Source: Thermoguttaceae bacterium (GTDB lineage Bacteria; Planctomycetota; Planctomycetia; Pirellulales; Thermoguttaceae). Taken from it: a stretch of 64,000 bases of DNA. Made by a program: the position numbers and the translations under genes. Positions 9,025-56,864 of the stretch are shown here, one piece after another (within the stretch, counting starts at the first letter, position 1; every line of letters begins with the position of its first letter). The stretch is from positions 1 through 64,000 of the forward strand of contig JAFZAL010000017.1 of NCBI GenBank assembly GCA_017557195.1. The letters run 5' to 3'. A model generated the notes under the pieces. That model saw only the letters and a program-made list of their open reading frames with translations. It had not been told where the DNA came from and made no database searches.

Positions 9025-9186
9025 TGGGTGGAAACAAATTTTTTAGTAAAAAAGTGGAAAATTTTTTCTGTTTTGGAAAAAATCCGTCGGATTACTAAAA
9101 GTCAAACAAAAACGTCTCCCTCTCAACCCGTTGACATGATATCTGGCGAGATCCAATATTAATACGGTAAATTCTCGCGCCTGTCC

Positions 9187-9214
9187 TTGACATCTCGAAC
9201 AGATGATATATATT
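9187..9214 (+). promoter_or_regulatory. Putative promoter of pgi
   Basis: TTGACA (9187-9192) and TATATT (9209-9214) are spaced by 16 nt, about 170 bp before the pgi start. A second TTGACA lies at 9131-9136 with a poorer -10 candidate. Confidence 0.45.
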
Positions 9215-9295
9215 CTTGATAAAAGTTTATTGAGTTAAAACGAGTCGTTTTGACAACAACGGCGATTGGATTTGTTTCGAGAAGAGTTGATGAGG

Positions 9296-9334
9296 CGCTT
9301 GCGTTTCTCGCAACTCGCAACTCGCAACTCGCAA
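9296..9334. repeat. Heptamer array (CTCGCAA)x4 with octamer core
   Basis: The octamer CGCTTGCG (9296-9303) is followed by four perfect CTCGCAA units at 9307, 9314, 9321 and 9328. It lies between the promoter candidates and the start of pgi. Confidence 0.85.
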
Positions 9335-39962: not shown

Positions 39963-42956
39963 TTATTTCTTTTGGAGCCTTTTCAGACAAAACAGCCCCG
40001 CAACGCCGAGAATCAACAGCGCCCACGTCGACGGTTCAGGAATGGCGTTGTGGTCGATGTATCGACGTCCGGTAATGGCGTACTTGCCGGAATACGTACC
40101 GCTGGTAAGCTGAACGTATTGCAAATTGTTGAAATCGCTCGAACGAACGTATTTGCTAATAAAGTCGTCTTTAATATCTGCGCTGTTTTTTCCTGATAAA
40201 ACAGCGGTAAACTCCTGGCCTTCCTGCAGCGTGCAGTCGTCTGTCGCCGCCAGATAAACGATGCTGCCGTCGTGCAATTCAAGATTGCCATAATCAACAA
40301 TCAGCACGTCATTCTGACTAGCGTCCGTCCCGCGGATTTCCATCAACAACTCAGCGCCAGCTTCATTGAGAATAAAACCGCCGCCGTATGTTTCATCGCC
40401 AATTATAAGCACCCCAGGCGAGTTGCCAGGCGAGAATACAGCGCCAGAGTCTACAGACAGCAGACCCTTGAAATATCCTTGCATATCCAAACGTCCGGAA
40501 GAAACAAACATACTTTCAGCCGAAATCATCCCCTGAGTTTCCGCTAAAATCTTCAGCGTGCCGTCTCCGGTTTTTTTGATGTCTCCCGTTCCAAAGATTT
40601 TGTTAGCGTTGGCGATTGTCATGCTTTTTAAATCGTTCCGATCAACGAACAGTTCCAGCGTACCTTTCTTAATGATGCCATTGTCGTTGGATTTGACGAC
40701 TTCAATCTGACCGTATGTTGTAAGGGCTTGGTCCCTTAACTGCACTACGCCTTCAGAAACGGTTATTTTAGCGGTGTATGTATTATCGCTAATGTTTGGA
40801 TCATAAAACGTTCCAGAAAAAACTGCAACGCCAGCGCCATCTTTATTAATTCCTTGGGTGCTGTTATTGGCTTTATAAATAGCGTTTGTAAAAACCAGTT
40901 TTGCGTTTTCATCTACAGTAATTTTTAATAAGTGGTTTTCACGAACTTTAATCGGAACGGATATCGTTGAATCGCCGGGCGCTGCATAAGCACGAATTGA
41001 CGTCCCTACTTTCATTTCAATACCTTTACAGTTAGGATGATCCTCTCCTGCTTTGATAGTTCCTTGAGTTAAATGAAAATGTTTATACGACAACGTTTGG
41101 TTTTCATCAACGTTTAAAAGAAATGTACCGCCGTTTATGTAAAAGTTTACATCATTATTGCCATTGCCAAAGGAGTCTTTAGCCGTACATTCAAGCGTAC
41201 CATTTGCATTGATGTAAACTTTAACGTTTGGGGCAAACCGATCTAACAGATGGTCCTTATCAATAAACAGTTGAGTAGCTAAACAAAGCGTTCCTTCGTT
41301 AATTACTACATTGCAATCGATGGAATTATTATCTTCCAGTGTAGCTGTAAGAGACAGCTTTCCAGTTCCTGTCTTAACCAACTGACCTTTAGCCTGACCA
41401 TTAGTACAGGAAATTCTACCTGAATGCGTTGCTGTTATATCGGAATCAACGTTGATAGTTACCTGAGAATTGATAGTTTCCTGAGAACTATTGCTGGTAA
41501 TATCGCCAGAATAGGTCTGATTGGAGTAGTAATTGATAGTTAACGCCTCAGAACTATTGTTGGTAATATTACCAGAATAGCGCTGATTGGAGGCGGAGGA
41601 AGAGTAATTGATAATTAACGCCTGAGAACCATTGTTAGTAAGGTTGCCAGAGCCAGATCTGTCAGGGTCGTCAGACAGGTCGCGCAGCGTTCCACCTGCT
41701 TCCAAGATCAAATCTCCCACCGATAGTATAGTAGGTCCAAGAATACTCGGAGCTTTTGTAAGCGTTAAAGCGCCAGGTCCCATTTGATTCATTGAACTGG
41801 TTCCGGAAATAACGCCATTAAAGGTTTTATCTTCGGTATAGTTCAGCTTTAGCATGTAATCTGAACCGTTACATTCAAGATTGCCGTAACCTGTAAGGTT
41901 GGTCAGATTTGCACCGCCATTCAGAATCAAAGCTCCACTGCTGACTGTGGTATCGCCCGTTGAAGTCAAAGCTCCCGAGATCGTCAGCTCGCCTGAACCT
42001 GTTTTGGTAAGCGAACCTGTACCGGAAACAGAGCCGCCATAAGTTGCATCGGATGTCTGGTTGAGCGTTAAAACTACATTATTGCCAATCGAAATCGAAC
42101 CGCCGCTGCCGGACAGGTTATTAAACGTCTGATTGGCATTGAGCGTCAGATCGCCAGCGCTGGTAATACTCGACGCATTAGCAAAAACGTTCGCTTTTTC
42201 AAAAGAAACCTTGGATTTATCGTCAATATTAACATTGCCTGTAAAACCGCTTGAATCGTCGGGATTTAAATAAAACCCTATTTTCGAAGCATCGTTTGTC
42301 TTTTCGCCTGTATTAAAATTTAACGTTCCCGCTCCAGAAATAGCGCTTTCAACAGTCATCGAACGCGTATCGGAGGCTTTGGTATTGTTACTTTTTAATG
42401 TACCGTTTCCATTGACAAGAATGGTTCCCTGAATTGTCAGCGCCAAGTTGTCGTTGCCATTATAAACAGTTCCGTTGCCCAACACCAATTTATCTATTAC
42501 AACTGTGGGGCACTTAATATTCAGATAGCCCGTTTCATAGGCGGTCGCGTCATGATTATACCCCAGATATAACCAGTTGTAGTCGCCCCCGTTTTTGTAA
42601 GGAAAATTCTCCGGAGTAGAAGTGTTGGCATTGCCCGGCGCTCTTAACCAAAAACCGTCGCCAACTGTATATATAGCGCCATTGTTATTGACTGGTTTAT
42701 AATTGTTGGAAGTCGGTGCATCAGGGTATATAGCGGGATATGCTGAAACAGGAGACCAGTTTTGATAATTCCAATTTAGACCAAGGTCTTTATCGGCTTG
42801 ATCTCTGCTCAAATAGTATACAGTTTGCGCTTCCGCAGACGAAGAAAATAGAAAAACGGAGGTTCCAAAAGTCAATACAATGACCGCTGCAATGCGAAGA
42901 TAACTTCGCAGCATTAGACAAAATTTATCGAATTGTCTATAGGTATAGGCTTTCAT
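39963..42956 (-). CDS. PEP-CTERM autotransporter-associated beta-strand protein
   Basis: A 997-aa exported surface protein. The signal peptide is near residues 15-44 (IAAVIVLTFGTSVFLFSSSA, then EAQ). The body is a long series of beta-strand repeats with the recurring GTGSLTKTGSGELTISGALT style, Gly/Asn/Thr-rich, predicted to be a right-handed beta-helix. The C-terminus is a full PEP-CTERM sorting signal: PEPSTWALLIL from residue 973, hydrophobic helix, then KRLQKK. It should be processed by an exosortase such as the one at 59224. The start is the ATG at 42956; a TTG three codons upstream is the alternative. It is relatively AT-rich. Confidence 0.88.
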   Translation of the reverse strand: MKAYTYRQFDKFCLMLRSYLRIAAVIVLTFGTSVFLFSSSAEAQTVYYLSRDQADKDLGLNWNYQNWSPVSAYPAIYPDAPTSNNYKPVNNNGAIYTVGDGFWLRAPGNANTSTPENFPYKNGGDYNWLYLGYNHDATAYETGYLNIKCPTVVIDKLVLGNGTVYNGNDNLALTIQGTILVNGNGTLKSNNTKASDTRSMTVESAISGAGTLNFNTGEKTNDASKIGFYLNPDDSSGFTGNVNIDDKSKVSFEKANVFANASSITSAGDLTLNANQTFNNLSGSGGSISIGNNVVLTLNQTSDATYGGSVSGTGSLTKTGSGELTISGALTSTGDTTVSSGALILNGGANLTNLTGYGNLECNGSDYMLKLNYTEDKTFNGVISGTSSMNQMGPGALTLTKAPSILGPTILSVGDLILEAGGTLRDLSDDPDRSGSGNLTNNGSQALIINYSSSASNQRYSGNITNNSSEALTINYYSNQTYSGDITSNSSQETINSQVTINVDSDITATHSGRISCTNGQAKGQLVKTGTGKLSLTATLEDNNSIDCNVVINEGTLCLATQLFIDKDHLLDRFAPNVKVYINANGTLECTAKDSFGNGNNDVNFYINGGTFLLNVDENQTLSYKHFHLTQGTIKAGEDHPNCKGIEMKVGTSIRAYAAPGDSTISVPIKVRENHLLKITVDENAKLVFTNAIYKANNSTQGINKDGAGVAVFSGTFYDPNISDNTYTAKITVSEGVVQLRDQALTTYGQIEVVKSNDNGIIKKGTLELFVDRNDLKSMTIANANKIFGTGDIKKTGDGTLKILAETQGMISAESMFVSSGRLDMQGYFKGLLSVDSGAVFSPGNSPGVLIIGDETYGGGFILNEAGAELLMEIRGTDASQNDVLIVDYGNLELHDGSIVYLAATDDCTLQEGQEFTAVLSGKNSADIKDDFISKYVRSSDFNNLQYVQLTSGTYSGKYAITGRRYIDHNAIPEPSTWALLILGVAGLFCLKRLQKK

Positions 42957-43253
42957 TGTATACAATTAGACTCAATCTCTCCCAAAAAGTTCCAAGATTG
43001 AGTCCCCCGTTTCCGAAATAGCGTTATAATTATAATCTCTCTTATTATAATTAAAATCGTCAGATTTAAAGGGATAGTCAAGCGATTTAACGAAAAAAAC
43101 CTCAAAATTTTTGATAATTTAGGGAATATAGGCAACAAAATCGAGATTTATATAGCGAACAGATATAAATTATTATAGATAAGTCGTATATTTTCCACAA
43201 ATGGAAGCGCAGTATAATATTAAGCGCTTCCCGATTCAGTTATAGAAATTTGA

Positions 43254-45173
43254 CTATGCCCGGCGGCGAACGACGACTTCAAACGGAAGCAAGACGGCTG
43301 ACGTTTCGTCCGTTCGGCTCCCGCCGTAGACAGGCGATTCCGTCGTCAGAAGCAGGTTGTCGAACATGTCCGGCGGGACGGGAACCGGGTCTGTCGTTAC
43401 GTTGGCAACAGCGATATAAGTCAAATTATCCTGTCGAAAACCGTCTTTGCCGCTGACCGTCCAGCGCCACGTCAGGATGGACGGCTGCGTCTCGCACTTT
43501 GCCGTTGGGAAGTAAAGCAGTCCGGCGCCGTTGGCTTGAGCGTACGGCTTGAACGACTGACCGGCAACGCCCGTTTGCTTTCTGACGGCGATGAGGTCTT
43601 TGTAGAGCTGCAAGCGTTGGTCGTAAACGTCAGACGTCCACGACAGCGACGCCTGTTCGAACGTTTTGGAGTCGAACGGGTCGGCGACTTTGGGCAGTTT
43701 CTGCTGGTGCATGTACTCCATGTCCCGCTGACGCCCACGACGAACGGCGCGTTTGAGTCCCTCGTCTTCAAAAGTCGTAAAGAACGGGAACGGGTTCCGC
43801 TCGCCGTATTCTTCGCCCATAAAAAGGAGCGGAACAAAGGGCGAAAGAATCGTAACCGCCGCGGCAAACCGAGCCGCAGCCGGCGAGATTTTCGTTCCCA
43901 GTCGTTTCGATTCCGCACAGTTGCCCGCCTGGTCGTGAGTTTGGTTGTAAACAATCAGCCGGGTCGGGTCGATATAGTCGAAATTTGTCCCCCATGTTTT
44001 CTTGTAACGTTTTCGATAAACCCCGTCGTAAAGCCAGCCGTCGACAAACGCCTTGAGCAGCGCTTCCGCGGGATTTTTGAACCGTTCACTGACGCTGAAA
44101 TCTTCGTATAATCCGCTCCGTTCTCCTGTTACAAGAGCGTGCAGCGCATGATGAAATTCAATATTCCAGACGCCGTCCAGACCGTATCCGTTACGTGACA
44201 GCGGTTCGATTTTGATTCGGTAGTTGTCGTCATCTTCCGCTGTTACAAACGTCGTCCGATTGTTGTGTTTTCCGTATTTATGAACCGCTTTGGAGATCTG
44301 CGCCAGAATATGCGTTCCAGACATGTCCGTAATCGTGTCGGTCGCGTCGAGACGCAAGCCGTCAAACCCGAATTCCCGAATCCAATACACGGCGTTTTCC
44401 GTTACATATTGACGCACCGGATCGGAATTCTCCCCGCCGTAATTAATCGCCGCTCCCCACGGGTTGGTAAACCGGGAATCGAAATAGTCGGAAATCGCCC
44501 CTAAATAGCAGCCCTCCGGCCCGAAATGGTTATAGACGACGTCGAGAATAACCGCCAAACCCAACTCGTGCGCCCGGGCGACAAACGCTCGCAGTTCGTC
44601 CGGCGTCCCGTAAACGCAAGTCGGCGCGTAAATATATACGCCGTCGTAACCCCAACTCAGTCCCGGAGATTCTGCCACCGGCATGACTTCCACCGCTGTC
44701 GCGCCCAGGTCTTTGATATATTCCAGCTTTTCCGCCAACGCCGCCCAGTAGGATTTATCAACGGGTTTCTTCCCTATAAAGGCGGCTGGATGGAGTTCGT
44801 AGATAATCAGGTCTTTGTACTCGACGCCATGCCAGGATGGAGGGACAAGGTCGTCCGGCGGCGCTGTTCTCAAACCGGACGGACCGTGAACTCCCAGCGG
44901 CTGAGCTGCGCTGCGCGGGTCGGGGTACTGTTTTCCGTCCGCCAGACGAAACATGTACAGCCAATCTCGCCCAACTTCCGCTTCGGCTGTAAACCAGCCT
45001 CTTTCCGCCGGGGTCATTGCAACGACTTTCGTCTCCCGCCCTGCCCTGTACGCCTCTGCGGATTCGTACAGAACGAGGTCAACCGTCGGCGACTTAACGC
45101 TCCAGACGGAAAACGTACACTGTCCGGACGTCTGCCCGGCAGGAAGAACGGCGTGGTTGGAGTAGGAGTGCAT
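43254..45173 (-). CDS. treZ: Malto-oligosyltrehalose trehalohydrolase
   Basis: A cytoplasmic GH13 enzyme (639 aa) that releases trehalose from maltooligosyl-trehalose. An N-terminal CBM48-like beta domain (about 10-100) precedes the barrel, which shows VILDVVYNHFG, the nucleophile region GFDGLRLDATD, the acid region TFVTAEDDDN, and NQTHDQAGN, the TreZ form of the last conserved region. No treY is present in the window; its substrate maker must be elsewhere. The gene starts just downstream of the longest heptamer array, and no ribosome site is visible. Confidence 0.87.
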   Translation of the reverse strand: MHSYSNHAVLPAGQTSGQCTFSVWSVKSPTVDLVLYESAEAYRAGRETKVVAMTPAERGWFTAEAEVGRDWLYMFRLADGKQYPDPRSAAQPLGVHGPSGLRTAPPDDLVPPSWHGVEYKDLIIYELHPAAFIGKKPVDKSYWAALAEKLEYIKDLGATAVEVMPVAESPGLSWGYDGVYIYAPTCVYGTPDELRAFVARAHELGLAVILDVVYNHFGPEGCYLGAISDYFDSRFTNPWGAAINYGGENSDPVRQYVTENAVYWIREFGFDGLRLDATDTITDMSGTHILAQISKAVHKYGKHNNRTTFVTAEDDDNYRIKIEPLSRNGYGLDGVWNIEFHHALHALVTGERSGLYEDFSVSERFKNPAEALLKAFVDGWLYDGVYRKRYKKTWGTNFDYIDPTRLIVYNQTHDQAGNCAESKRLGTKISPAAARFAAAVTILSPFVPLLFMGEEYGERNPFPFFTTFEDEGLKRAVRRGRQRDMEYMHQQKLPKVADPFDSKTFEQASLSWTSDVYDQRLQLYKDLIAVRKQTGVAGQSFKPYAQANGAGLLYFPTAKCETQPSILTWRWTVSGKDGFRQDNLTYIAVANVTTDPVPVPPDMFDNLLLTTESPVYGGSRTDETSAVLLPFEVVVRRRA

Positions 45174-45179
45174 TGGGAG

Positions 45180-45358
45180 GTGGTAAGTTGTAAGTGGTAA
45201 GTAGTAAGTGGTAAGTGGTTAGTTGTTAGTGGTTAGTGGTAAGTAGTAAGTGGTAAGTTGAAAGTTAGTTGAGCGCTTGCGTACTAACCACTAAAAACTT
45301 ATTACTAACCACTGATTAGCGCTTGCGTACTTAATGCTTACCACTTGAAACTTACTGC
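45180..45358. repeat. Longest heptamer array (GTGGTAA type), upstream of treZ
   Basis: At least twelve consecutive 7-nt units (GTGGTAA, GTTGTAA, GTAGTAA, GTGGTTA, GTTGTTA) run from 45180. The octamer CGCTTGCG occurs twice (45274-45281 and 45320-45327), followed by complementary CTAACCA/CTTACCA units. The whole can fold as long imperfect arms. Confidence 0.92.
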
Positions 45359-46108: not shown

Positions 46109-46531
46109 TTTTTTAATCCTTTGTATCAGAGGTACTTATACTCTCTATTTCACGCTTGTTTCGCTTCCATGCGAATTAATGCGTTCATACCTGAGCGATT
46201 CCATAACGCTTCCTGCGCCAGAATCCTCTATATTGTTAGAATCGGTATTTTCCTTAAAAATGTTAAATAAAAATTTTAAACTTGTGTATTCAGTAAATTC
46301 ATACTATAAGTTCGTATGTATTTCTTTAAATGCAAAAAATAGATAAAATAGCCAATTAAATAAAAATGTAAAAAATTATTCTTTTTTATAGCCCTCCCCT
46401 CTTGTAATTATCCAACCTTTTTAGTATTGTCAGTTATATATTCGTTTTTATGTAATCAGGTTTGTTTTCTTTTTCTTTGAAAAAAACAAGCTGATACGTC
46501 TTGTTTTCCCTTTTTTCAATACAGCGTTATC
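46109..46531. other. AT-rich gap before the TIR gene
   Basis: Very AT-rich, no supported gene. A weak promoter candidate for the plus strand is TTGTCA at 46427-46432 with TGTAAT at 46451-46456. No ribosome site precedes the TIR gene start. Confidence 0.4.
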
Positions 46532-49500
46532 ATGAACAAAGCCTCAAAATCGTTGAAAATCTTTATCAGCTACGGACACGAAATTGGAGCAGTAGACGAC
46601 TCTGGAAATCCATATTCGAATCCGAATAACGAAAGCGTCGTTCATCAAATCAAGACGTATCTGGAAAGTCGTGGACATGAAATCTGGTTGGATAAAGATA
46701 AAATCAAGCCGGGGGACGACTGGCGAAAAGCAATTTACAACGGAGTTGAATGGTCGGACGTTGCATTGATCTGTCTGTCTCACAAAGCGATGAAGCCCAA
46801 CGGGGTTTGCCGAGACGAAATATCCATTGCAATGGGCGTTCGCGGCGGAAATATGTTCTCTGTCAAGCTGGAAGCGTTGGAAGACGCCGAGTATCCGGCG
46901 TATCTGCTAAACCGTCAGCTGTTTTCTAAATTTCAGGATTGGCGCATCCATTGTATAGAAGACAACATTGATGAAGCCTGGCTCGATAAAAACCTGGAAA
47001 CGCTTGCCCAATCTCTGGAAGAAGAGAATGTTTGGCGATACGGCGTTGAAATGGTTGAACTCAAGAAACTCCTCAAGCCCTGGAACATGAACAGTCGGCT
47101 TCGGAGTCTGGATCGCGGTTCACAGTACCTTTATAACGATGAAACGGATGAATACGAGAAAAAAATAGTTCACAAATTCTGTGGACGCGAGTCTCTTTTT
47201 GAATTGTTTGAAAACGAGAAGTCCCAGGAAGCCTATCTGGAGTCAGACCGCATTTTATGGCTCAAAAAAGGTCCCGGTTTTGGAAAGAGCCGATTTGCGG
47301 CAGAGCTTCTTTATCGATATTATTTCGCAATCAGCGCTGCTTATTTTGTTGAATACAATCTGGAAGAATCCCACAAATCGCAAACGTTTATTAAATCCGT
47401 TGCATACCAGCTGGCTCAGACGAATTCCTCTTATCGGGAAAGACTGTTAGGCGTTCTCAGAGCGAATCTGGATGAGATAAACCGACAAATTGACAACCCG
47501 GAAAAGCTGTTTAAAACGCTGGTTGTTGATTTATTAGAGGACGAGTTCGACGAAGAAAGAACGACTCAATGGATTCTGGTTGACGCTCTGGACGAAGCGA
47601 CGGAGAACAGCCGTAACGAGATTGCATCGTTGATCAGCCAAAACATTGACAATCTGCCGTCGTGGATTCGCTTTTATATTACGTCTCGAGACAATGACAA
47701 TGCAGTTAATCAAAGCTTCAACGATTTTACGCCCATTGACTTCGAGGACGAGGAAAACGTCAACGACATTCTGGAATACATTCGCAGCGAATTCAGCGCC
47801 TTGGGGCTTTCCGTCTCGGAAGAATTGATAAATATTCTTCTGGAAAAGTCCGAGGGAACGTTCCTGTATCCGGAAATGGTCTTTCGCGATCTGGAGAAAA
47901 ACGCGTTTACGGTCGACGATATTCGCGATTTGCCCAAGGGCGTAATCGGGTATATTCATGCCCAGTTTGAGCGTCTTTTCGAAGATAAATTGGAATCGTA
48001 TAATACAGAAATTCGTCCGTGGCTGGGGTATGTTTTAACGTCTTGCGAACCGATCCCGCGCGGCGTGTTAAAATACGCTTTGGGAATTCGGGAAGATTCT
48101 GAACTCGAGCGTCGATTAAATCTTCTGGGAACGTTTTTTGTTCAGTCCGGCTCTACAGACGAAGATACAGTTGCTCCATTCCACAAAAGCGTTATTGACT
48201 ACTGCTTTAATAAAAACGTTTCCTTTATTTTCTACGTTGATCCAGATGAAGCCAAAGAACGATTTGCACAAACCGGTTTGGGATTGTACGAATCCGGCGC
48301 TTTGCAATGGATAAAAAGAACCGACGAAAAGCCGGATATCGCGCAGCGTTACTTTTTAACGTGGCTGCCATCTCATTTAATGAACGCGAACGATTCCCCA
48401 AAATCGGCGGCTGTCCTGTCGGATTTCGCATTCTTGATGAAACGGCTGCGATTCGGAAACGTAGAACGCGTTTTGCTGGACTATATTCTTTTCAGAGGAA
48501 ACCTTGATCGAATTTCAAAAGACTGCAGCGCCTATTTTGACGTTATTTGCAGTAACGCGCATTATTTGCGCCATAACAGCGAGGACAATCCCGCATACAA
48601 GATTATGCTTCAAATCGCCACTGAAGTTGCTGACGATTGCCCTGTAACGCTGGCGGCGGAACGTTGGCTCAACCCGGAAGAAGGCGATTCCCCCTGCGAC
48701 TGGTTCTGGATTAATAAAGTCAACCGTCCCAAAGAATACCAGCCCAGCCCGTATAAACTTGTAATCGAGTATGCTGGCGATCACGCGATACTTCTTTCCA
48801 ACGGCAACGCTTTGTCCTGGGGAACAGACGATTATAACCTTCGGATTTGGGATCTGGAAACAGGCGCATGTAAAGTTGTTATGAAAGGACATACAGATGA
48901 AGTCTATAGAGTCCTTGAGCTTCGCACCGGCGACTTTCTCTCCTGGAGTAAAGATAGAACCTTGCGTATTTGGTCGCCGGATGGAACGTGCAAAGCCGTA
49001 TCGGACGGAAATACCGATTCTGACCGGGGCTTTTTAGAACTTCGTTCTGGCGCAATTCTTTCATGGTGTATTTATGCTCTAGTCGAAAAAAAAAGTTATG
49101 TAGGTCAAGAAGAAAAATCAATCCGAATCTGGGCTCCTGACGGCAATCTTATATCAGTAATAAGAGGGCACTCTAAACACATCAAAGGCGCAATCGAGCT
49201 GCAATCCGGCGAGATACTTTCATATAGCGACGACTCCCAACGAATTTGGTCGACAAATGCGCCAAACAGTGAAGTTAGAACTGTTCTTGAAGGACGTTCA
49301 CAATGGATCGAAGGCGCCAGAGAACTCCGTTCCGGCGACATTCTGACATGGGACAATGAATCATTGCATCTTTGGTCTTCTGACGGGGAACGTAAAGCCG
49401 ATCTGGAAGGACATACAAACAACGTCAGAGAAGCTATTGAACTTGACTCTGGAGATATTCTGTCCTGGTGTTATGGAGATGACAATACGCTGCGTCTCTG

Positions 49501-52261
49501 GTCTCCCGACGGCGTTTGCAAAGCTGTTCTTGAAGGACATAATAACTTGATTTATGGAGCTATCGAACTTCGTTCCGGAGACCTTCTTTCATGGGACAGG
49601 GACGGCGTCATGCATCTTTGGTCTCCCGATGGCGTTAGCAAGGCGGTTCTTGAAGGACATACAGATTATATCATCGGCGCCAAAGAACTCAGTTCTGGCG
49701 ATATTCTTTCGTGGAGCAAGGATTCAACTATTCGTCTTTGGTCGCCCGATGGCGCATGCAAAGCCGTTCTGAAAGAACGTACGGATTATGTCAAGGGCGT
49801 GATTGAACTTCCTTCTGGGGATATTCTCTCATGGAGCAATGATCAATCCTTATGTATCAGGTCTATAAAGAGTATTCATATAACCATAGAAGAAGGACAT
49901 ATTGCCCCCATAGACGACGTTTTGAAACTTAGTTCCGACAACGTTCTGTCCTGGTGCGGCGACAGGCTAAACGGAAGCAAAGATCATACATTGCGTCTTT
50001 GGTCTCCAAACGGTAAATGTATTGCTGTTATGGGCAAGCATAAACTTGGAATCAATGGCGCTATTGAATTGAAATCTGGCAATATTCTTTCCTGGAGCGA
50101 CGATAAAACTCTGCGTATTTGGTCTCCCAAAGGAAAGTGTATAGCTGTTCTGAAAGGTCACCATGAAAGAATTGGAAACGCTATAGAGCTGAGTTCTGGA
50201 GAGATTGTTTCTTCATGTAGATTTCTCGTTTGTCATGATAACACATTGCGTCTTTGGTCTCCAGACGGGACGTGTAAAGCCGTCATGGAAGGACATACCG
50301 ACATTGTCTGGGGAACTAAAGAACTTCGTTCTGGCGATATTATTTCGTGGAGCAGCGATCGCACATTGCGAATTTGGTCTGCCGATGGAAAGTGTAAAGC
50401 GGTTCTGAAAGGGCATACAGACGATCTTGATAACGTCATGGAACTTCGTTCTGGCGATATTCTTTCCTGGAGCAGAGATGCAACTTTACGCATTTGGTCT
50501 CCTTATGGGGATTGTAAAGCTGTTATGGAGGGACATGAAAGCTGGATTGAAGGCGCTAAAGAACTTCGTTCTGGAGACATTCTCTCTTGGTGTTTATCTG
50601 GAAATGATTACACTTTGCGCCGTTGGTCTCCTGATGGGACTTGTAAAGCTGTTATGGAGGGGCATACAGATGAAGTCAAAGGAGCAATAGAGTTGGATTC
50701 TGACGATATTCTTTCATGGAGTTGGGATCAAACTTTGCGTATTTGGTCGCCAGATGGGTCATGTAAAGAAATAATTGAGCAGGACGATCCTCGGTATGAC
50801 AGATTGTATGCCATGTTTTGGGAGGATCGAGTTTATGAACAATTTTATTCTAAACGATCCGCTTGTGGTATTGAGTTACAACACGATTATAAGCCAATCG
50901 CCCAGTGGAATGGCGTTGAATGCACCCCCCTGTTTGTTGGCGCTGGACGTCTGTGTGTTTGGTATGGAAGCAATGTTGAGTTTCTCCAGCTCAACTATGG
51001 CAATCATACGAGCGTTTCTTTTAGTCAGACTTGCCAATTAATTTCACATGAAATTGAAGAGTCAAACCTGACAGAATATACTCCAATATCTCCTGTTATG
51101 GAGGATGACGATGTTTCTGAAGAAAATGACGATGCGTTTGAAGAAATCAACGATGCTTTAATTGATGAAAGCTATTCAACGCAAGTCAATTTTTTTGAAA
51201 TTATCGGTAAAAACATTGATACTCTTGGAAATCATCTTCATGAGTATTACCAAAAGGCTGAAAATGGAGATCTTAATTCTCAAATTACTCTTGGCCGCAT
51301 CTTTTACAATGGTTTTGGAGTTCCTGTAGATAAAAGTGAAGCCATAAAATGGTGGCTCAAAGCGGCGGAACAAGGAAATATTGAGTCTCAAGCCGCCGTA
51401 GCTATGGGCTATGAGAATGGCGATGGCATTGAACAAAACATCCCGGAAGCCATAAAATGGTATCGAAAAGCGGCTGAACAGGGACATGCGATATCGCAAT
51501 TAAAGCTTTTCTATTTGCTTTTGTTTACAGATAATACAGAAGCGATCAAATGGCTGACCAGTGCAGCTGAACAAGGAAATGTGGATGCACAATTTGGTCT
51601 GGCGTTATGCTATCATACCGGAAAAGGCTGCCGTCCAGATATGGAAAAGGCCATAAAGTGGTATTTTGAAGCGGCTAAGCATGGACACCCTCAGGCTCAA
51701 TACGCAATTGGCTCTTACTATCAGGATATCAAAGGAGATATAGAAGAAGCCATTAAATGGTATCGCAAAGCGGCGGGAAATGGAAATGCAAGCGCTCAAT
51801 ATAATTTAGGTCAATGCTATTATCAAGGCGATGGCGTTGAGCAAGATAGCGAAGAAGCTGTAAAATGGTTTTTAAAGGCGGCAGAACAGGATGACGACTC
51901 TGCCCAATACCTTCTTGGCGTTTGCTATATCACCGGAGACGGCGTTCCTAAGAACTCTACAGTTGCTCTTGACTGGTTTCATAAAGCTGCGGATCAAGGA
52001 GATGACAGCTCTATGTACGCCATAGGTTTGTGCTACTATAAAGGCGATGGCGTTGAGCAAGATAGCGAAGAAGCTGTAAAATGGTTTTCAAAGGCAGCGC
52101 AAAAAGGAAATGCAAGAGCGCAATTCTATTTAGGGGTTTGCTATTATAATGGCGAAGGCGTTGAACGAGATAAAGCAGAAGCCAAAAAATGGTTGAATGA
52201 AGCGGCAAAGCAAGGGAATGAGGATGCTATTAAAGCGTTAAACTCATTGAAGGGTAAATAA
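46532..52261 (+). CDS. TIR - STAND NTPase - WD-like propeller - Sel1 protein
   Basis: A giant 1909-aa soluble protein. Residues 7-165 are a TIR domain (KIFISYGHE, LDKDKIKPGDDWRKAI, SDVALICLS; Glu96 in GVCRDEI fits the NADase glutamate position). Residues about 215-560 are a STAND/NACHT-type NTPase with Walker A GPGFGKS (247-253), Walker B WILVDALDEA and FYITSR as sensor. Residues 560-745 are helical. Residues 750-1410 hold 16 WD-like units of about 40 aa (consensus SGDILSWSxDxTLRIWSPDG, CKAVLEGHTD). After an acidic linker, residues 1572-1909 hold nine Sel1 repeats. The plan fits a ligand-sensing switch whose TIR would cleave NAD or signal. A role in phage defence is inference. It stands alone. 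Confidence 0.9.
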   Translation: MNKASKSLKIFISYGHEIGAVDDSGNPYSNPNNESVVHQIKTYLESRGHEIWLDKDKIKPGDDWRKAIYNGVEWSDVALICLSHKAMKPNGVCRDEISIAMGVRGGNMFSVKLEALEDAEYPAYLLNRQLFSKFQDWRIHCIEDNIDEAWLDKNLETLAQSLEEENVWRYGVEMVELKKLLKPWNMNSRLRSLDRGSQYLYNDETDEYEKKIVHKFCGRESLFELFENEKSQEAYLESDRILWLKKGPGFGKSRFAAELLYRYYFAISAAYFVEYNLEESHKSQTFIKSVAYQLAQTNSSYRERLLGVLRANLDEINRQIDNPEKLFKTLVVDLLEDEFDEERTTQWILVDALDEATENSRNEIASLISQNIDNLPSWIRFYITSRDNDNAVNQSFNDFTPIDFEDEENVNDILEYIRSEFSALGLSVSEELINILLEKSEGTFLYPEMVFRDLEKNAFTVDDIRDLPKGVIGYIHAQFERLFEDKLESYNTEIRPWLGYVLTSCEPIPRGVLKYALGIREDSELERRLNLLGTFFVQSGSTDEDTVAPFHKSVIDYCFNKNVSFIFYVDPDEAKERFAQTGLGLYESGALQWIKRTDEKPDIAQRYFLTWLPSHLMNANDSPKSAAVLSDFAFLMKRLRFGNVERVLLDYILFRGNLDRISKDCSAYFDVICSNAHYLRHNSEDNPAYKIMLQIATEVADDCPVTLAAERWLNPEEGDSPCDWFWINKVNRPKEYQPSPYKLVIEYAGDHAILLSNGNALSWGTDDYNLRIWDLETGACKVVMKGHTDEVYRVLELRTGDFLSWSKDRTLRIWSPDGTCKAVSDGNTDSDRGFLELRSGAILSWCIYALVEKKSYVGQEEKSIRIWAPDGNLISVIRGHSKHIKGAIELQSGEILSYSDDSQRIWSTNAPNSEVRTVLEGRSQWIEGARELRSGDILTWDNESLHLWSSDGERKADLEGHTNNVREAIELDSGDILSWCYGDDNTLRLWSPDGVCKAVLEGHNNLIYGAIELRSGDLLSWDRDGVMHLWSPDGVSKAVLEGHTDYIIGAKELSSGDILSWSKDSTIRLWSPDGACKAVLKERTDYVKGVIELPSGDILSWSNDQSLCIRSIKSIHITIEEGHIAPIDDVLKLSSDNVLSWCGDRLNGSKDHTLRLWSPNGKCIAVMGKHKLGINGAIELKSGNILSWSDDKTLRIWSPKGKCIAVLKGHHERIGNAIELSSGEIVSSCRFLVCHDNTLRLWSPDGTCKAVMEGHTDIVWGTKELRSGDIISWSSDRTLRIWSADGKCKAVLKGHTDDLDNVMELRSGDILSWSRDATLRIWSPYGDCKAVMEGHESWIEGAKELRSGDILSWCLSGNDYTLRRWSPDGTCKAVMEGHTDEVKGAIELDSDDILSWSWDQTLRIWSPDGSCKEIIEQDDPRYDRLYAMFWEDRVYEQFYSKRSACGIELQHDYKPIAQWNGVECTPLFVGAGRLCVWYGSNVEFLQLNYGNHTSVSFSQTCQLISHEIEESNLTEYTPISPVMEDDDVSEENDDAFEEINDALIDESYSTQVNFFEIIGKNIDTLGNHLHEYYQKAENGDLNSQITLGRIFYNGFGVPVDKSEAIKWWLKAAEQGNIESQAAVAMGYENGDGIEQNIPEAIKWYRKAAEQGHAISQLKLFYLLLFTDNTEAIKWLTSAAEQGNVDAQFGLALCYHTGKGCRPDMEKAIKWYFEAAKHGHPQAQYAIGSYYQDIKGDIEEAIKWYRKAAGNGNASAQYNLGQCYYQGDGVEQDSEEAVKWFLKAAEQDDDSAQYLLGVCYITGDGVPKNSTVALDWFHKAADQGDDSSMYAIGLCYYKGDGVEQDSEEAVKWFSKAAQKGNARAQFYLGVCYYNGEGVERDKAEAKKWLNEAAKQGNEDAIKALNSLKGK

Positions 52262-52435
52262 GAATCGCATCTTACTTCCTGTACTCCCTTTAATTCAACA
52301 ATTTGATTCCAAGGACGGCGAAGCCCATGCTACAAACGCCCTCCAAATCAACTCAGTCTCTTTCCATTTCCTCCCAACGCTGCAGGCAACGAGAGGGAAG
52401 GGAAAGAGATATATGTCGTTTTTTACGTCTTTCGC

Positions 52436-52512
52436 CTGCGGACTGAAACCCTCGGATATAAGAGTTGTGCCCCTGGACACGATTTGACTTTCCACCTTAT
52501 CTATCTTCACAA
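52436..52512. repeat. Dispersed repeat, copy 2
   Basis: Diverged copy of 66-145 in the same orientation, sharing GACTGAAACCCTCGG-like, AAGAGTTG and TTATCTATCTTCACAA-like blocks. It lies downstream of the TIR gene. Confidence 0.5.
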
Positions 52513-52623
52513 CCCAATTTTGAACGTCCCCGATTTTACTGGCGCGTTTGGCGTCCCCTATTTTCGTTTTTAAATTCTTGGGTATAATATTAATATAGTC
52601 GTGAATTGACGCGAAGCGTCTAA

Positions 52624-53749: not shown

Positions 53750-54718
53750 ATGAAATACAACGCTATTCTGTGTACAATCGTATTGAGTTTGTTAACCTCT
53801 TTTGCTTCTGCGGAAGACGGTCAGCAGTATTTTGCTTTTTCTTACTTTACCGGCAATGGCGAGCATGGGCTTCATCTGCTTGTCAGTCAGGACGGCTTGA
53901 AGTGGGACAAGGTCAACGGCGGAGTTCCGCTGTACCGTCAGACGCTGCCGGGCGACAACCTCATGCGCGATCCCAGCATTTGCAAAGGTCCGGACGGGAC
54001 GTGGCATCTGGTCTGGACGACGTCGTGGAAACGTGACTTTATCGGTCATTCCACCAGCGCCGATTTAATCCACTGGACGCCCTCGCAGGCGATTCCCGTC
54101 ATGGCGCACGAGCCGACCTGCCGCAACACCTGGGCGCCGGAAATTTTCTACGACGACGCCACCGAGCAGTTTTACATCTTCTGGTCGTCGACCATTCCCG
54201 GACGCTTTTCTGAACGCGGAACCAGCGAGTCCAGCCTCGACCATCGCATGTACTTTGTAACAACCAAAGACTTCAAAACGTTCTCCCCAACGAAGCTGTT
54301 TTTCAATCCCGGGCACAACGTCATCGACGGCATGATCGCCAAGCTGGACAAGACGTATTATCTGTTCTATAAAGACGAACGGCTCAAGCGCCCGGCGGAA
54401 GACGGTTCTATCGTAGAGGGCAAAAGCATCTGGCTGGCAACCGCGCCGTCTGTAGAAGGTCCGTATACCGCCGGGAAAATCGTCTCCCCGATGAACTGGG
54501 TGGAAGGTCCAACGGCGTTTCGAGTCAACAACCGCTGGCTGGTTCTCTACGACTGCTACGCCGCTCATCATTACGGGGCAATCGAGTCCGCCGACGGCGT
54601 CAACTGGACGGACGTAACCGACAAGCTCTCCATTCCCAAAGAAGTTCGTCACGGAACGGTTTTCGAAATCAGCCAGAAGGAATACGAGGCGTTGAAGGCA
54701 GTAGGCAGTAGGCAGTAA
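53750..54718 (+). CDS. Secreted GH43-like five-bladed propeller hydrolase
   Basis: A 322-aa exported protein (signal peptide with a cut near ASAE). It has a GH43/GH32-type propeller layout: RDPSICKGPDGTWHLVWTT, TWAPEIFYD (candidate Asp/Glu region), NVIDGMIAKLDKTYYLFYKD, and VEGPTAFRVNNRWLVLYD with the conserved E-G-P. Such enzymes act on arabinans, xylans or galactans. The final codons are made by a heptamer array, giving the end AVGSRQ. The start overlaps another heptamer array, so no ribosome site is present. Confidence 0.8.
   Translation: MKYNAILCTIVLSLLTSFASAEDGQQYFAFSYFTGNGEHGLHLLVSQDGLKWDKVNGGVPLYRQTLPGDNLMRDPSICKGPDGTWHLVWTTSWKRDFIGHSTSADLIHWTPSQAIPVMAHEPTCRNTWAPEIFYDDATEQFYIFWSSTIPGRFSERGTSESSLDHRMYFVTTKDFKTFSPTKLFFNPGHNVIDGMIAKLDKTYYLFYKDERLKRPAEDGSIVEGKSIWLATAPSVEGPYTAGKIVSPMNWVEGPTAFRVNNRWLVLYDCYAAHHYGAIESADGVNWTDVTDKLSIPKEVRHGTVFEISQKEYEALKAVGSRQ
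54697..54717. repeat. Heptamer array (GGCAGTA)x3
   Basis: Three perfect GGCAGTA units inside the 3' end of the GH43-like gene; they encode GSRQ-type residues and the stop codon. Confidence 0.85.
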
Positions 54719-54732
54719 GGCTAGGACTATCA

Positions 54733-55545
54733 ATGATCAATTATGGATTAAAGGACAGAGTGGCTCTAATCACCGGGGCGAACAACCCGCAGGGGATTGG
54801 AGCGACAACGGCTCTTGCGTTTGCTCGCGAAGGGGCAAAGGTCGTTTTAGTCTATAAGAAAATCTTCCGTCCGTTTGATACAAGCAAGACGGATCAAAAC
54901 GGGGTTGACCGATATTATCAGTCAAACGCCGGAAATGCAGACGTCGTCGAAAGCAAACTCAAGGAGATGAACGCGGACTATCTTGTTTTGGAAAGCGACA
55001 TATCCAACGAGGACGCGGTTAAAGAAATCTATTCGACGGTTATTGAACGGTTCGGACGAGTTGACGTTCTCGTCAATAACGCGGCGGTCGACGACGAAAA
55101 CGGTTTCGATACAATCGAAAAGATTACTCAAGACGTCATCGACAATGCCTTCGCGGTCAACGTCCGGGGAAGCTTGTTGATGATGCGGGAATTTGTCAAT
55201 CGCCGCAGCGATTACGGAAGAATCGTCAATATTTCTACAGACGCGGCACAAGTCTTTGCTGGCCAAATTACCTACGGAGCGAGCAAGGCAACGTTAGAAG
55301 CGCTGACTCGCAGCATCGCTCTTGAAGTCGGGAAGTACGGAATTACCGTGAACTGCGTTGCACCCGGCCCCACTCAAACCGGATGGATTGACGCGGAGCT
55401 GGAAAAAGCCGTCGTTCCGATAATCCCCATGGGAAAACTGATTCAACCGGAAGACATTGCAGAAACGATTCTATTCCTGGCAAGCAAACAGGCAAGATAT
55501 CTTACCGGACAAGTCATCAAAGTCTCCGGCGGACACGCGTTATAA
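54733..55545 (+). CDS. Short-chain dehydrogenase/reductase
   Basis: A 270-aa NAD(P)-dependent oxidoreductase of the classical SDR type. Cofactor site TGANNPQGIG (residues 14-23), NNAAVDDENG, catalytic Ser in VNISTDAAQ, Tyr-x-x-x-Lys in ITYGASKA, and VNCVAPGPTQTGWI. The end VSGGHAL is typical of FabG-like reductases. The substrate is not known. It is 14 bp after the GH43-like gene with AGGA as ribosome site, so it may be co-expressed and act on a sugar product; that is inference. Confidence 0.87.
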   Translation: MINYGLKDRVALITGANNPQGIGATTALAFAREGAKVVLVYKKIFRPFDTSKTDQNGVDRYYQSNAGNADVVESKLKEMNADYLVLESDISNEDAVKEIYSTVIERFGRVDVLVNNAAVDDENGFDTIEKITQDVIDNAFAVNVRGSLLMMREFVNRRSDYGRIVNISTDAAQVFAGQITYGASKATLEALTRSIALEVGKYGITVNCVAPGPTQTGWIDAELEKAVVPIIPMGKLIQPEDIAETILFLASKQARYLTGQVIKVSGGHAL

Positions 55546-55653
55546 ACTCCATTTGTCTATAATAATTCCTTATTATACAACATACACTTTCTGTGTTACA
55601 GTTGCCAGATATACATTTTTCTCAAAAAATCGTTAATTTATAGCATTCACCCC

Positions 55654-55681
55654 TTGAAAAATAGAAAACATGTATCATAAT
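55654..55681 (+). promoter_or_regulatory. Putative promoter of the SET-HNH gene
   Basis: TTGAAA (55654-55659), 16 nt, CATAAT (55676-55681) in an AT-rich 222-bp gap, about 85 nt before the ATG. Confidence 0.4.
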
Positions 55682-55767
55682 TATGTTATGTGTTATGAAA
55701 CTTTTAGATTCGTTCATAGAAGTTTTCACAAAAATTGGATTCAATCATCGTACATGAAAGGATTGAG

Positions 55768-56640
55768 ATGACAAGAGAAACTGCCAAAAAGTATTTTGCC
55801 CACGAAAAATGCAAATTGATCGACAAGTCGGGTGGCAATAACGTCAATGGGAAAACGGTAGTCGCTATAGCGCCTATTAAAAAACGTGAGCTTGTTTGTT
55901 ACGTGTGTGGAACGATTTATTCAGAAAATGGTCCCTATCGACCTGATGATGGTTATATTTGCGATTCTTTGGTAGACGATGTATTTTCATTTTACGATGA
56001 AAACAATGATCGTTCCATAGACCCGGGAAAAGTTCATAAACCAAAAACAAACCGAGTTACAAAACATATTTCAGGTTTTATCAATCACAGTTGTGAACCA
56101 AATTGCGAAATCATTTTCGACGAAGATGAAAAAATGTTGAAAATTGTCGCAATAGAACCAATTGGCGTTGATGAAGAAATTACCATCTATTATAGCGATA
56201 CCTGGTTTGAACGACGAGGTATCTATTGCCAATGTGGTAAAGCCAAATGCAAATTCTCCAAAGAAAGGGAATTGACTAAGAAGGAGAAGGATTACGCTAA
56301 AGAGGGCGAGAGAATCGAAAGAATCGAAAATAATCCTAAAAGGAATCGAGCGCTTCGAGACAAAGTGATCAAAAATAGTAAAGGTAGATGTCAAGTCTGT
56401 GGCAGACAACTTACTGAAATGTATGGTGAGTTTGGAGCAGGAGTTCTTGAAGTTCATCATGAAACGCCTCTGGGAGCACGTAAGGGCAAAGGTTCAATTA
56501 CACATCTTGAAGATTTGATTGCCGTTTGTCCCAATTGTCATGCAGTTTTGCATAACATGGAAAAATACCCTACAGATGCTACAACCAAAAGTTTGAAAAG
56601 AACAATTAAACAAAGACGGGAAGAAAATGAGGAAGAATAA
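55768..56640 (+). CDS. SET-domain methyltransferase fused to HNH nuclease
   Basis: A 290-aa cytoplasmic fusion. Residues about 10-150 form a SET domain: GKTVVAIAPIKKRELV at the start, the SAM/pseudoknot motif GFINHSCEPNC (N106-H107-S108) and the EEITIYYSDTWF strand. A post-SET zinc motif follows (C154, C156, C161). After a charged helix (165-200) an HNH domain runs from 205 to 262 with C208/C211, the LEVHHE pair (H230, H231) and C254/C257/H258 (AVCPNCHAVLH). The SET part should methylate lysines in a protein; the HNH part should cut DNA. The start is ATG 55768 with AAAGGA upstream; TTG 55735 is the alternative. More AT-rich than its neighbours, with its own promoter and terminator: probably acquired. 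Confidence 0.88.
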   Translation: MTRETAKKYFAHEKCKLIDKSGGNNVNGKTVVAIAPIKKRELVCYVCGTIYSENGPYRPDDGYICDSLVDDVFSFYDENNDRSIDPGKVHKPKTNRVTKHISGFINHSCEPNCEIIFDEDEKMLKIVAIEPIGVDEEITIYYSDTWFERRGIYCQCGKAKCKFSKERELTKKEKDYAKEGERIERIENNPKRNRALRDKVIKNSKGRCQVCGRQLTEMYGEFGAGVLEVHHETPLGARKGKGSITHLEDLIAVCPNCHAVLHNMEKYPTDATTKSLKRTIKQRREENEEE

Positions 56641-56666
56641 TTATCTTCTATATTGATCTTTATCGC

Positions 56667-56707
56667 ACGGACAGACGGAAATGATTCAGGTCTGTCCGTT
56701 GTTTTTT
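56667..56707 (+). terminator. Rho-independent terminator of the SET-HNH gene
   Basis: A 10-bp perfect stem (ACGGACAGAC / GTCTGTCCGT) with a 13-nt loop, followed by a T-rich tract (TGTTTTTTA), 27 bp after the stop codon. Confidence 0.85.
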
Positions 56708-56783
56708 AGATTCTGAACAGAGTGATTGAAATCAGCTGAGAAGAGAGTATGAGGAGCTAAAGGCGCAGAGACTGTAGAAAAAA

Positions 56784-56864
56784 TTACGCAAGCGCAGTCT
56801 CGCTAAAAGAGGCGAGAATCTCGCTTGCGTAATTGCTAATTGTAAATTGACAATTGTTAATTTT
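56784..56864. repeat. Heptamer array TAATTGC type with two octamer cores
   Basis: CGCAAGCG (56787-56794) and CGCTTGCG (56822-56829) form a hairpin-like pair, followed by TAATTGC, TAATTGT, AAATTGA, CAATTGT and TAATTTT. The last unit supplies part of the iorB stop codon. Confidence 0.85.

What the first reader, a model, noticed from the sequence alone, without database searches (positions are those of the whole stretch)
46532..52261. TIR-STAND-propeller-Sel1 giant protein: candidate defence or signalling switch
One gene joins a TIR effector (Glu96 in the expected NADase position), a STAND NTPase, 16 WD-like units and nine Sel1 units. Two different sensor-type repeat blocks in the same protein are unusual; known STAND defence proteins usually carry one. 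The propeller units are very similar to each other, a sign of recent expansion and possible diversification of the sensing surface. It has no obvious partner gene, an AT-rich upstream region and repeats after it.
Basis: partly seen in the sequence, partly recalled or inferred. Interest (0 to 1): 0.75.

Follow-up and report, generated by a model that had tools for sequence, protein, structure and literature searches.

The report
Bacterial TIR-NLR family, hypervariable propeller sensors
The gene is a real bacterial immune-receptor-like protein, one of about ten sister genes in this gut planctomycete that keep the same toxic 'off-switch' half but differ mainly at the exposed contact points of their propeller sensors, much as some fungal self/non-self receptors do.

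Summary
In detail: one 1909-codon ORF (46532-52261, +) encodes TIR, NACHT-type STAND NTPase, 16 WD40 units, a conserved cap and nine Sel1 repeats, with all catalytic motifs intact. The reading as a single, recently expanded two-sensor protein is only partly right. The genome (Thermoguttaceae, ruminant-gut type) carries about ten paralogues: eight intact, one frameshifted, one decayed. They share the TIR-NACHT half (about 65-87% identity), but their WD40 arrays vary in length (11-19 HMM segments) and in sequence independently of it (Mantel r = -0.02). Variation sits at WD40 unit positions 9, 10, 12, 27, 29 and 39, including the three known top-face contact hotspots; essentially all indels fall in the same two loops. 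The units are not recently duplicated (~80% DNA identity, non-hotspot dS ~0.56). The window locus and two other tested loci are empty in congeners. Six of the genome's seven copies of a 30-bp palindrome lie upstream of family genes. Only the window copy has Sel1 repeats. Best reading: a bacterial counterpart of fungal HET-NACHT-WD40 receptors, with sensor-triggered STAND oligomerisation switching on a TIR NADase and cell death or dormancy. Phage defence is likely but untested. New variant of a known kind.

The parts
46532..52261 (+). Whole gene, 1909 aa: TIR - NACHT/STAND - APAF1_C-like helical region - 16 WD40 units - conserved cap - linker - 9 Sel1 repeats
46613..46906 (+). TIR domain (aa 28-125; box 1 IFISYGHE at aa 10-17); predicted NADase effector
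   Evidence: Pfam TIR_2 E 1.2e-14; PDB 7uxr TIR domain protein E 1.5e-4 with the family profile
46817..46819 (+). Codon for Glu96 (VCRDEIS), the putative catalytic glutamate
   Evidence: invariant in the 10-sequence alignment and kept in distant relatives L020 and L024; Asp in the decayed copy C61p
47204..47689 (+). NACHT-type STAND NTPase core (aa 225-386)
   Evidence: Pfam NPHP3_N E 2.5e-18
47270..47290 (+). Walker A GPGFGKS (aa 247-253)
   Evidence: sequence; invariant; position
47573..47599 (+). Walker B ILVDALDEA (aa 348-356), followed by sensor-1-like ITSRD at aa 383-387
   Evidence: sequence; invariant; position
48176..48205 (+). Winged-helix motif PFHKSVIDYC (aa 549-558), the histidine position typical of NACHT and NB-ARC proteins
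   Evidence: sequence; His551 invariant; position
48338..48577 (+). APAF1_C-like helical arm (aa 603-682)
   Evidence: Pfam E 3.6e-5; E 7e-6 in the TIR-less relative of G002
48782..50764 (+). 16 WD40 units (aa 751-1411), the predicted sensor, hypervariable at unit positions 9, 10, 12, 27, 29, 39
   Evidence: all-beta blades in the model; best PDB match 2ymu, 'highly repetitive propeller'
50765..51094 (+). Conserved C-terminal cap (aa 1412-1521) shared with all full-length paralogues, where they end shortly after
51260..52258 (+). Sel1 block (about aa 1577-1909, nine Pfam stretches), found only in this family member
46403..46444 (+). Decayed copy of the family's upstream palindrome (AATTGAC-N15/16-GTCAATT in six paralogues; TGTAATTATCCAACC...GTCAGTT here)
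46300..52550 (.). Segment absent at the same site in three congeners: their flanking sequences lie 65 bp (G001), 78 bp (G002) and about 300 bp (G003) apart

Best explanation
The gene is one of about ten dispersed bacterial NLR-like receptors (TIR-NACHT-WD40). At rest the protein is a monomer held shut with ADP. The propellers bind a protein ligand, most likely a phage or other invader protein, through residues on their top faces. Binding releases the NACHT module, which swaps ADP for ATP and oligomerises. That clusters the TIR domains into an active NADase which depletes NAD+ and stops or kills the cell. The copies keep one effector and switch but vary the ligand-contacting residues and the number of blades, giving a small germline repertoire of specificities. 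In the window copy a Sel1 superhelix has been added at the C-terminus, probably as a second contact or scaffold surface. Shown here: architecture, intact catalytic motifs, family, hotspot variability, decoupled array evolution, presence/absence at loci. Inferred: ligand binding, oligomerisation, NADase activity, defence role.
For: Intact TIR Glu, Walker A/B, sensor and WHD motifs, invariant in ten paralogues; the TIR-NACHT half is under purifying selection (window vs C140b dN 0.073, dS 0.281). Own genome: eight intact copies, one frameshifted (C61a/b), one decayed with a lost P-loop and Glu96 replaced by Asp. Entropy over 73 complete 40-aa units peaks only at positions 9, 10, 12, 27, 29 and 39 (2.7-3.65 bits; all others below 2). 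Positions 10, 12 and 27 are the WD40 hotspots R1-2, R1 and D-1 (PMC3419727; my mapping); all three fall in the top four of 40 (chance 4e-4). 36 of 134 units carry indels, essentially all in the same two loops; 83 of 84 units have distinct hotspot combinations. dN at these sites is 1.19 versus dS 0.56 elsewhere in the unit; non-hotspot dN/dS is 0.24. Array identity is unrelated to TIR-NACHT identity: window/C140b 87% vs 56%; syntenic C140a/G002-C47 88% vs 67% with 19 vs 9 segments; Mantel r -0.02. Window, C57 and C144 loci are empty in congeners. Closest biology: Podospora HET-NACHT-WD40 proteins, hypervariable at positions 10, 11, 12, 14, 30, 32, 39 and triggering cell death (PMC12222747, PMC12881547).
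Against: No ligand, no activity data, no defence-island context, and no PADLOC model for the whole protein. The predicted TIR-NACHT model was unusable (mean pLDDT 33). Positive selection is not proven: within hotspot codons pN is about equal to pS, both saturated. No DNA stretch of 88% identity or more is shared between paralogue genes except within C61, so recent repeat exchange, a hallmark of the fungal system, is not seen. The family is confined to this species and one congener in the genomes searched, so conservation of function cannot be assessed broadly.
Confidence: 0.62

Rival explanations
1. Self/non-self or competitor recognition: the hypervariable propellers monitor a polymorphic cellular protein or a competitor's toxin rather than phage proteins, and the TIR output kills mixed or poisoned cells.
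For: Same architecture logic and largely the same variable positions as fungal HET-D/E, which recognise HET-C alleles. Presence/absence of loci between congeners.
Against: Bacterial cells do not fuse, and no polymorphic target gene is linked to the copies; neighbours are ordinary genes that differ at each locus.
Confidence: 0.13
2. Non-immune regulatory STAND switches, such as stress, development or compartment signalling, in which propellers scaffold cellular partners and variation reflects partner specialisation.
For: Planctomycetes are rich in WD40 proteins (PMC5587647). STAND proteins such as MalT are regulators (abstracts).
Against: A TIR with its catalytic Glu, locus presence/absence, a decayed copy, and array turnover between syntenic copies fit conflict better than housekeeping regulation.
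Confidence: 0.15
3. Decaying repetitive family: the TIR-NACHT part is maintained but the arrays drift freely, so hotspot variability is only relaxed constraint on surface residues.
For: pN about equal to pS in hotspot codons. C61 copies are broken and G002 carries two TIR-less forms. The window copy's palindrome is degenerate.
Against: Other surface positions of the unit stay conserved; variability picks out the known contact residues. Eight long ORFs are intact. The TIR-NACHT halves are under purifying selection.
Confidence: 0.1

Closest known systems
Podospora anserina HNWD NLRs (HET-D, HET-E, HET-R)
   Same: N-terminal TIR-related effector, NACHT, multi-unit WD40 array; small family of paralogues; conserved unit scaffold with hypervariable sites flanking the tetrad Asp and just after the tetrad His; variable unit number
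   Different: Bacterial; canonical TIR_2 rather than HET; within-array unit identity 50-76%, below the 85% high-internal-conservation criterion (PMC4986451); no sign of recent repeat exchange; one copy with a Sel1 tail
Prokaryotic highly repetitive WD40 proteins (Hu et al. 2017, PMC5587647; PDB 2ymu)
   Same: Near-regular WD40 units in a bacterium, hotspot sites more diverse than the scaffold; 2ymu is the best PDB match of the array model
   Different: Here the pattern is tied to a TIR-NACHT family in one genome, with array evolution decoupled from the effector half and syntenic turnover; units are not young by DNA divergence
Bacterial NLR-like / Avs-type STAND defence proteins
   Same: Effector - STAND NTPase - repeat sensor in one polypeptide
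   Different: Propeller sensor instead of Avs-type TPR (from general knowledge); no PADLOC Avs hit; many paralogues in one genome
Apaf-1, and TEP1/NWD1 (DUF4062-NACHT-WD40)
   Same: NACHT or NB-ARC - helical arm - WD40 layout; APAF1_C match; Apaf-1 among the fold matches of the array
   Different: N-terminal domain is TIR_2, not CARD or DUF4062; DUF4062 proteins act in bacteria as Swarozyc (PMC13174449), to which no match was seen

Membership tests
STAND/NACHT NTPases (NLR-like) | NACHT core with Walker A, Walker B and sensor-1 Arg | tested here: met
   NPHP3_N E 2.5e-18; GPGFGKS, ILVDALDEA, ITSRD invariant
STAND/NACHT NTPases (NLR-like) | Winged helix / helical arm followed by superstructure repeats | tested here: met
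   PFHKSVIDYC, APAF1_C match, WD40 array
STAND/NACHT NTPases (NLR-like) | Ligand-induced oligomerisation | not testable with these tools
   needs biochemistry
TIR NADases | TIR fold with catalytic Glu | tested here: met
   TIR_2 E 1e-14; Glu96 conserved across paralogues and distant relatives. Direct alignment of Glu96 to a solved NADase was not reached because the PDB match ends just before it
TIR NADases | NAD+ cleavage | not testable with these tools
   assay needed
Fungal HNWD-type hypervariable NLRs | Hypervariable sites at the WD40 interaction face | tested here: met
   fungal positions
Fungal HNWD-type hypervariable NLRs | High internal conservation (85% identity or more) of repeats | tested here: not met
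   mean within-array aa identity 50-76%; criterion
Fungal HNWD-type hypervariable NLRs | Concerted evolution by repeat exchange between paralogues | tested here: inconclusive
   arrays turn over and between-array identity is close to within-array (80 vs 82.5%), but no recent shared segments
Avs / other catalogued STAND defence systems | Match to a defence-system model over the STAND and sensor | tested here: not met
   PADLOC hits are TIR-only or Sel1-only
Swarozyc / DUF4062 NADases | DUF4062 domain | tested here: not met
   not among the 25 Pfam matches shown, where the N-terminal domain is TIR_2
DGR-diversified sensors | Reverse transcriptase in the genome | tested here: not met
   no RVT_1 match in the own genome (91% complete); control genomes positive; hotspot codons are not of the AAY-derived type (TGG, AAA, GAA common)

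The most novel reading that the evidence does not exclude
A bacterium keeps a germline repertoire of TIR-NLR receptors in which effector and switch are held constant while blade number and the three to five contact residues per blade diversify. It would be a bacterial, DGR-independent analogue of fungal allorecognition NLRs and plant NLR clusters, transcribed as a group through a shared palindromic promoter element, with C-terminal modules such as Sel1 swapped on to add specificities.
Probability: 0.3. Interest if true: 0.8.

Novelty: new variant of a known kind. Interest (0 to 1): 0.56.

Why it matters
NLR repertoires with hypervariable sensors are known from plants and fungi. In bacteria, diversified sensors have been tied mainly to DGRs, and hotspot diversity in highly repetitive WD40 proteins was noted only in general terms. 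A compact family in one genome, with a constant effector and variable contact residues, makes two questions testable: whether bacteria evolve receptor repertoires by blade diversification, and what such propellers recognise. Changing only five positions per blade should change specificity.

Tried and rejected
Recent repeat amplification: rejected by DNA divergence. DGR: no reverse transcriptase and wrong codon types. Recent gene conversion between paralogues: no shared segments of 88% identity or more except the C61 frameshift overlap and an internal Sel1 pair. Plasmid or phage carriage: no tblastn match in either collection. Catalogued defence system: PADLOC and NCBIfam give only partial domain hits. 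PtuA hit: explained by Sel1/TPR-like repeats only. Structure of TIR-NACHT: the two-sequence alignment gave a useless model. The propeller model is only partly confident (mean pLDDT 60.6, pTM 0.39) and fold matches have low query TM-scores (0.21-0.30), so the blade count per propeller (two of eight, or another split) stays open. C127 locus: the congener comparison found only one flank, so it is inconclusive.

Full report
What is there. The ORF at 46532-52261 (+) is intact and encodes 1909 aa. Pfam places TIR_2 at 28-125, NPHP3_N/NACHT at 225-386, an APAF1_C-like arm at 603-682, WD40 repeats and nine Sel1 repeats. A family-specific HMM gives 16 WD units between aa 751 and 1411. All motifs expected of a working STAND switch and TIR enzyme are present: IFISYGHE, VCRDEIS with Glu96, GPGFGKS, ILVDALDEA, ITSRD, PFHKSVIDYC.

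It is a family. A six-frame search of the window's own assembly found many places with 64-84% identity (whole-query match) over the TIR-NACHT half plus WD40 arrays. Reading them out gives eight intact genes (window, C140a, C140b, C57, C46, C195, C127, C144), one frameshifted gene (C61a/b) and one decayed partial gene (C61p: Glu96 replaced by Asp, degenerate P-loop). A congener, G002 (Thermoguttaceae MAG RGIG2232, goat duodenum), has one intact copy and two shorter proteins that keep only the region after the P-loop plus WD units. In G001 and G003 the matches listed are Sel1 stretches only, and G001 has no match to the TIR-NACHT half. Of 297 sampled genomes of the order, besides the own genome only three gave matches, weak ones at 27-33% identity; at least one of those is a TIR-NACHT-WD40 protein of ordinary type (L020). 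No plasmid or phage record matched.

Constant effector, variable sensor. Pairwise identity of the TIR-NACHT halves is 65-88%, but array identity does not follow it (Mantel r -0.02, p 0.52). The window gene and its nearest relative C140b share 87% in the first 740 aa (dS 0.28) but only 56% in the arrays. C140a and the G002 copy sit at the same locus next to the same transporter gene and share 88%, yet have 19 and 9 WD segments in their arrays. Within the 73 complete 40-aa units of this genome, six positions (9, 10, 12, 27, 29, 39) have 2.7-3.65 bits of entropy and every other position is below 2 bits. Positions 10, 12 and 27 correspond to R1-2, R1 and D-1, the top-face residues generally used by WD40 proteins to bind partners (PMC3419727); the mapping uses the tetrad residues His7 and Asp28 and the surrounding small/bulky pattern and is mine. 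36 of 134 units carry indels, essentially all in the two loops that hold these positions, and 83 of 84 units have a different five-residue combination. Outside the six sites dN/dS is 0.24; at the six sites dN is 1.19, about twice the dS of the rest of the unit. Because hotspot codons are saturated (pN about pS), this is evidence of strong diversification relative to the scaffold but not formal proof of positive selection.

Not a recent amplification. Units within an array share 82.5% DNA identity outside the hotspots and units from different arrays 80.1%; dS is 0.51 and 0.58. No stretch of 88% identity or more is shared between the genes apart from the C61 overlap and two Sel1 repeats.

Locus behaviour and regulation. 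The window gene with its upstream region is absent at the same place in three congeners, whose flanking sequences lie 65, 78 and about 300 bp apart; whether this is gain here or loss there is not settled. The C57 locus is empty in G002 (189 bp against 4.6 kb) and the C144 locus in G001 (about 0.8 kb against 5.5 kb). The C127 comparison is inconclusive. Copies have unrelated neighbours. Most share about 90 bp of upstream sequence including a palindrome AATTGAC...GTCAATT. In 4.18 Mb the exact spaced palindrome occurs seven times, six of them upstream of family genes, and the reversed control pattern not once. The window copy has only a degenerate version, so its expression may differ.

The Sel1 tail. 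All other full-length copies end roughly 100-155 aa after the last WD unit, some with a hydrophobic FFSWLFGLFGWK-type end. The window copy keeps the conserved cap up to TEYTP and then continues through an acidic linker into nine Sel1 repeats. Sel1 proteins are common in this genome, the best at 53% identity, so a local fusion is the simplest origin. The two-sensor architecture is thus private to this copy.

Mechanism. By analogy with Apaf-1, with fungal HNWD receptors and with TEP1-type proteins, propeller binding of a ligand would release the NACHT module, which oligomerises and activates the TIR domains; NAD+ loss then stops the cell. The parts are shown; the steps are inferred. Phage proteins are the most likely ligands given what is known of bacterial NLR-like proteins, but allorecognition or another cellular trigger is not excluded.

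Known or new. Hypervariable hotspots in highly repetitive prokaryotic WD40 proteins were noted before (PMC5587647), and DGR-driven sensor diversification is known (PMC10907252); this genome has no RVT_1 reverse transcriptase match. PADLOC holds no model of the whole protein. I place it as a new variant of a known kind: a genome-wide bacterial TIR-NLR family with a constant effector and diversified propeller contact residues.

Noticed in passing
window 55735-56640 (+): A 301-aa protein with a SET domain (E 1e-13) fused to an HNH endonuclease domain (E 3e-5). The stretch around it is missing in two congeners: G002 alignments join 55557 to 56813, G001 joins 54717 to 56784, so a second gain or loss lies near the TIR gene.
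   Followed up: partly
L017:7103-10018 (-) and L018:2967-4724 (+), congener G002: Two proteins of 972 and 585 aa that lack TIR and P-loop but keep the arm region and WD40 arrays of this family; possibly decoys, adaptors or relics.
   Followed up: partly
L014:2636-8568: Tandem of a decayed TIR-NACHT fragment and a frameshifted full copy: family members at different stages of decay.
   Followed up: partly
L009, L012, L014 family C-termini: Some paralogues end in a hydrophobic FFSWL(F/L)GL(F/L)G(W/Q)K tail, others in an acidic PESKG..PKTE tail: alternative C-terminal endings, perhaps membrane attachment.
   Followed up: no
L010 about 9070-9300; several window intergenic regions (e.g. 11016, 12890, 21932, 30499, 33958): Short dispersed repeats of about 30-80 bp present dozens of times in each congener (44-60 listed matches per genome with this flank).
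   Followed up: no
window 39963-42965 (-): 1000-aa secreted protein with a PATR repeat match and PEP-CTERM sorting signal, containing a 66-bp tandem repeat at 41468-41592.
   Followed up: no
window 45180-45258: Heptamer array GTGGTAA, about 11 copies, just upstream of the start of the glycosidase-like ORF (43254-45173, -).
   Followed up: no
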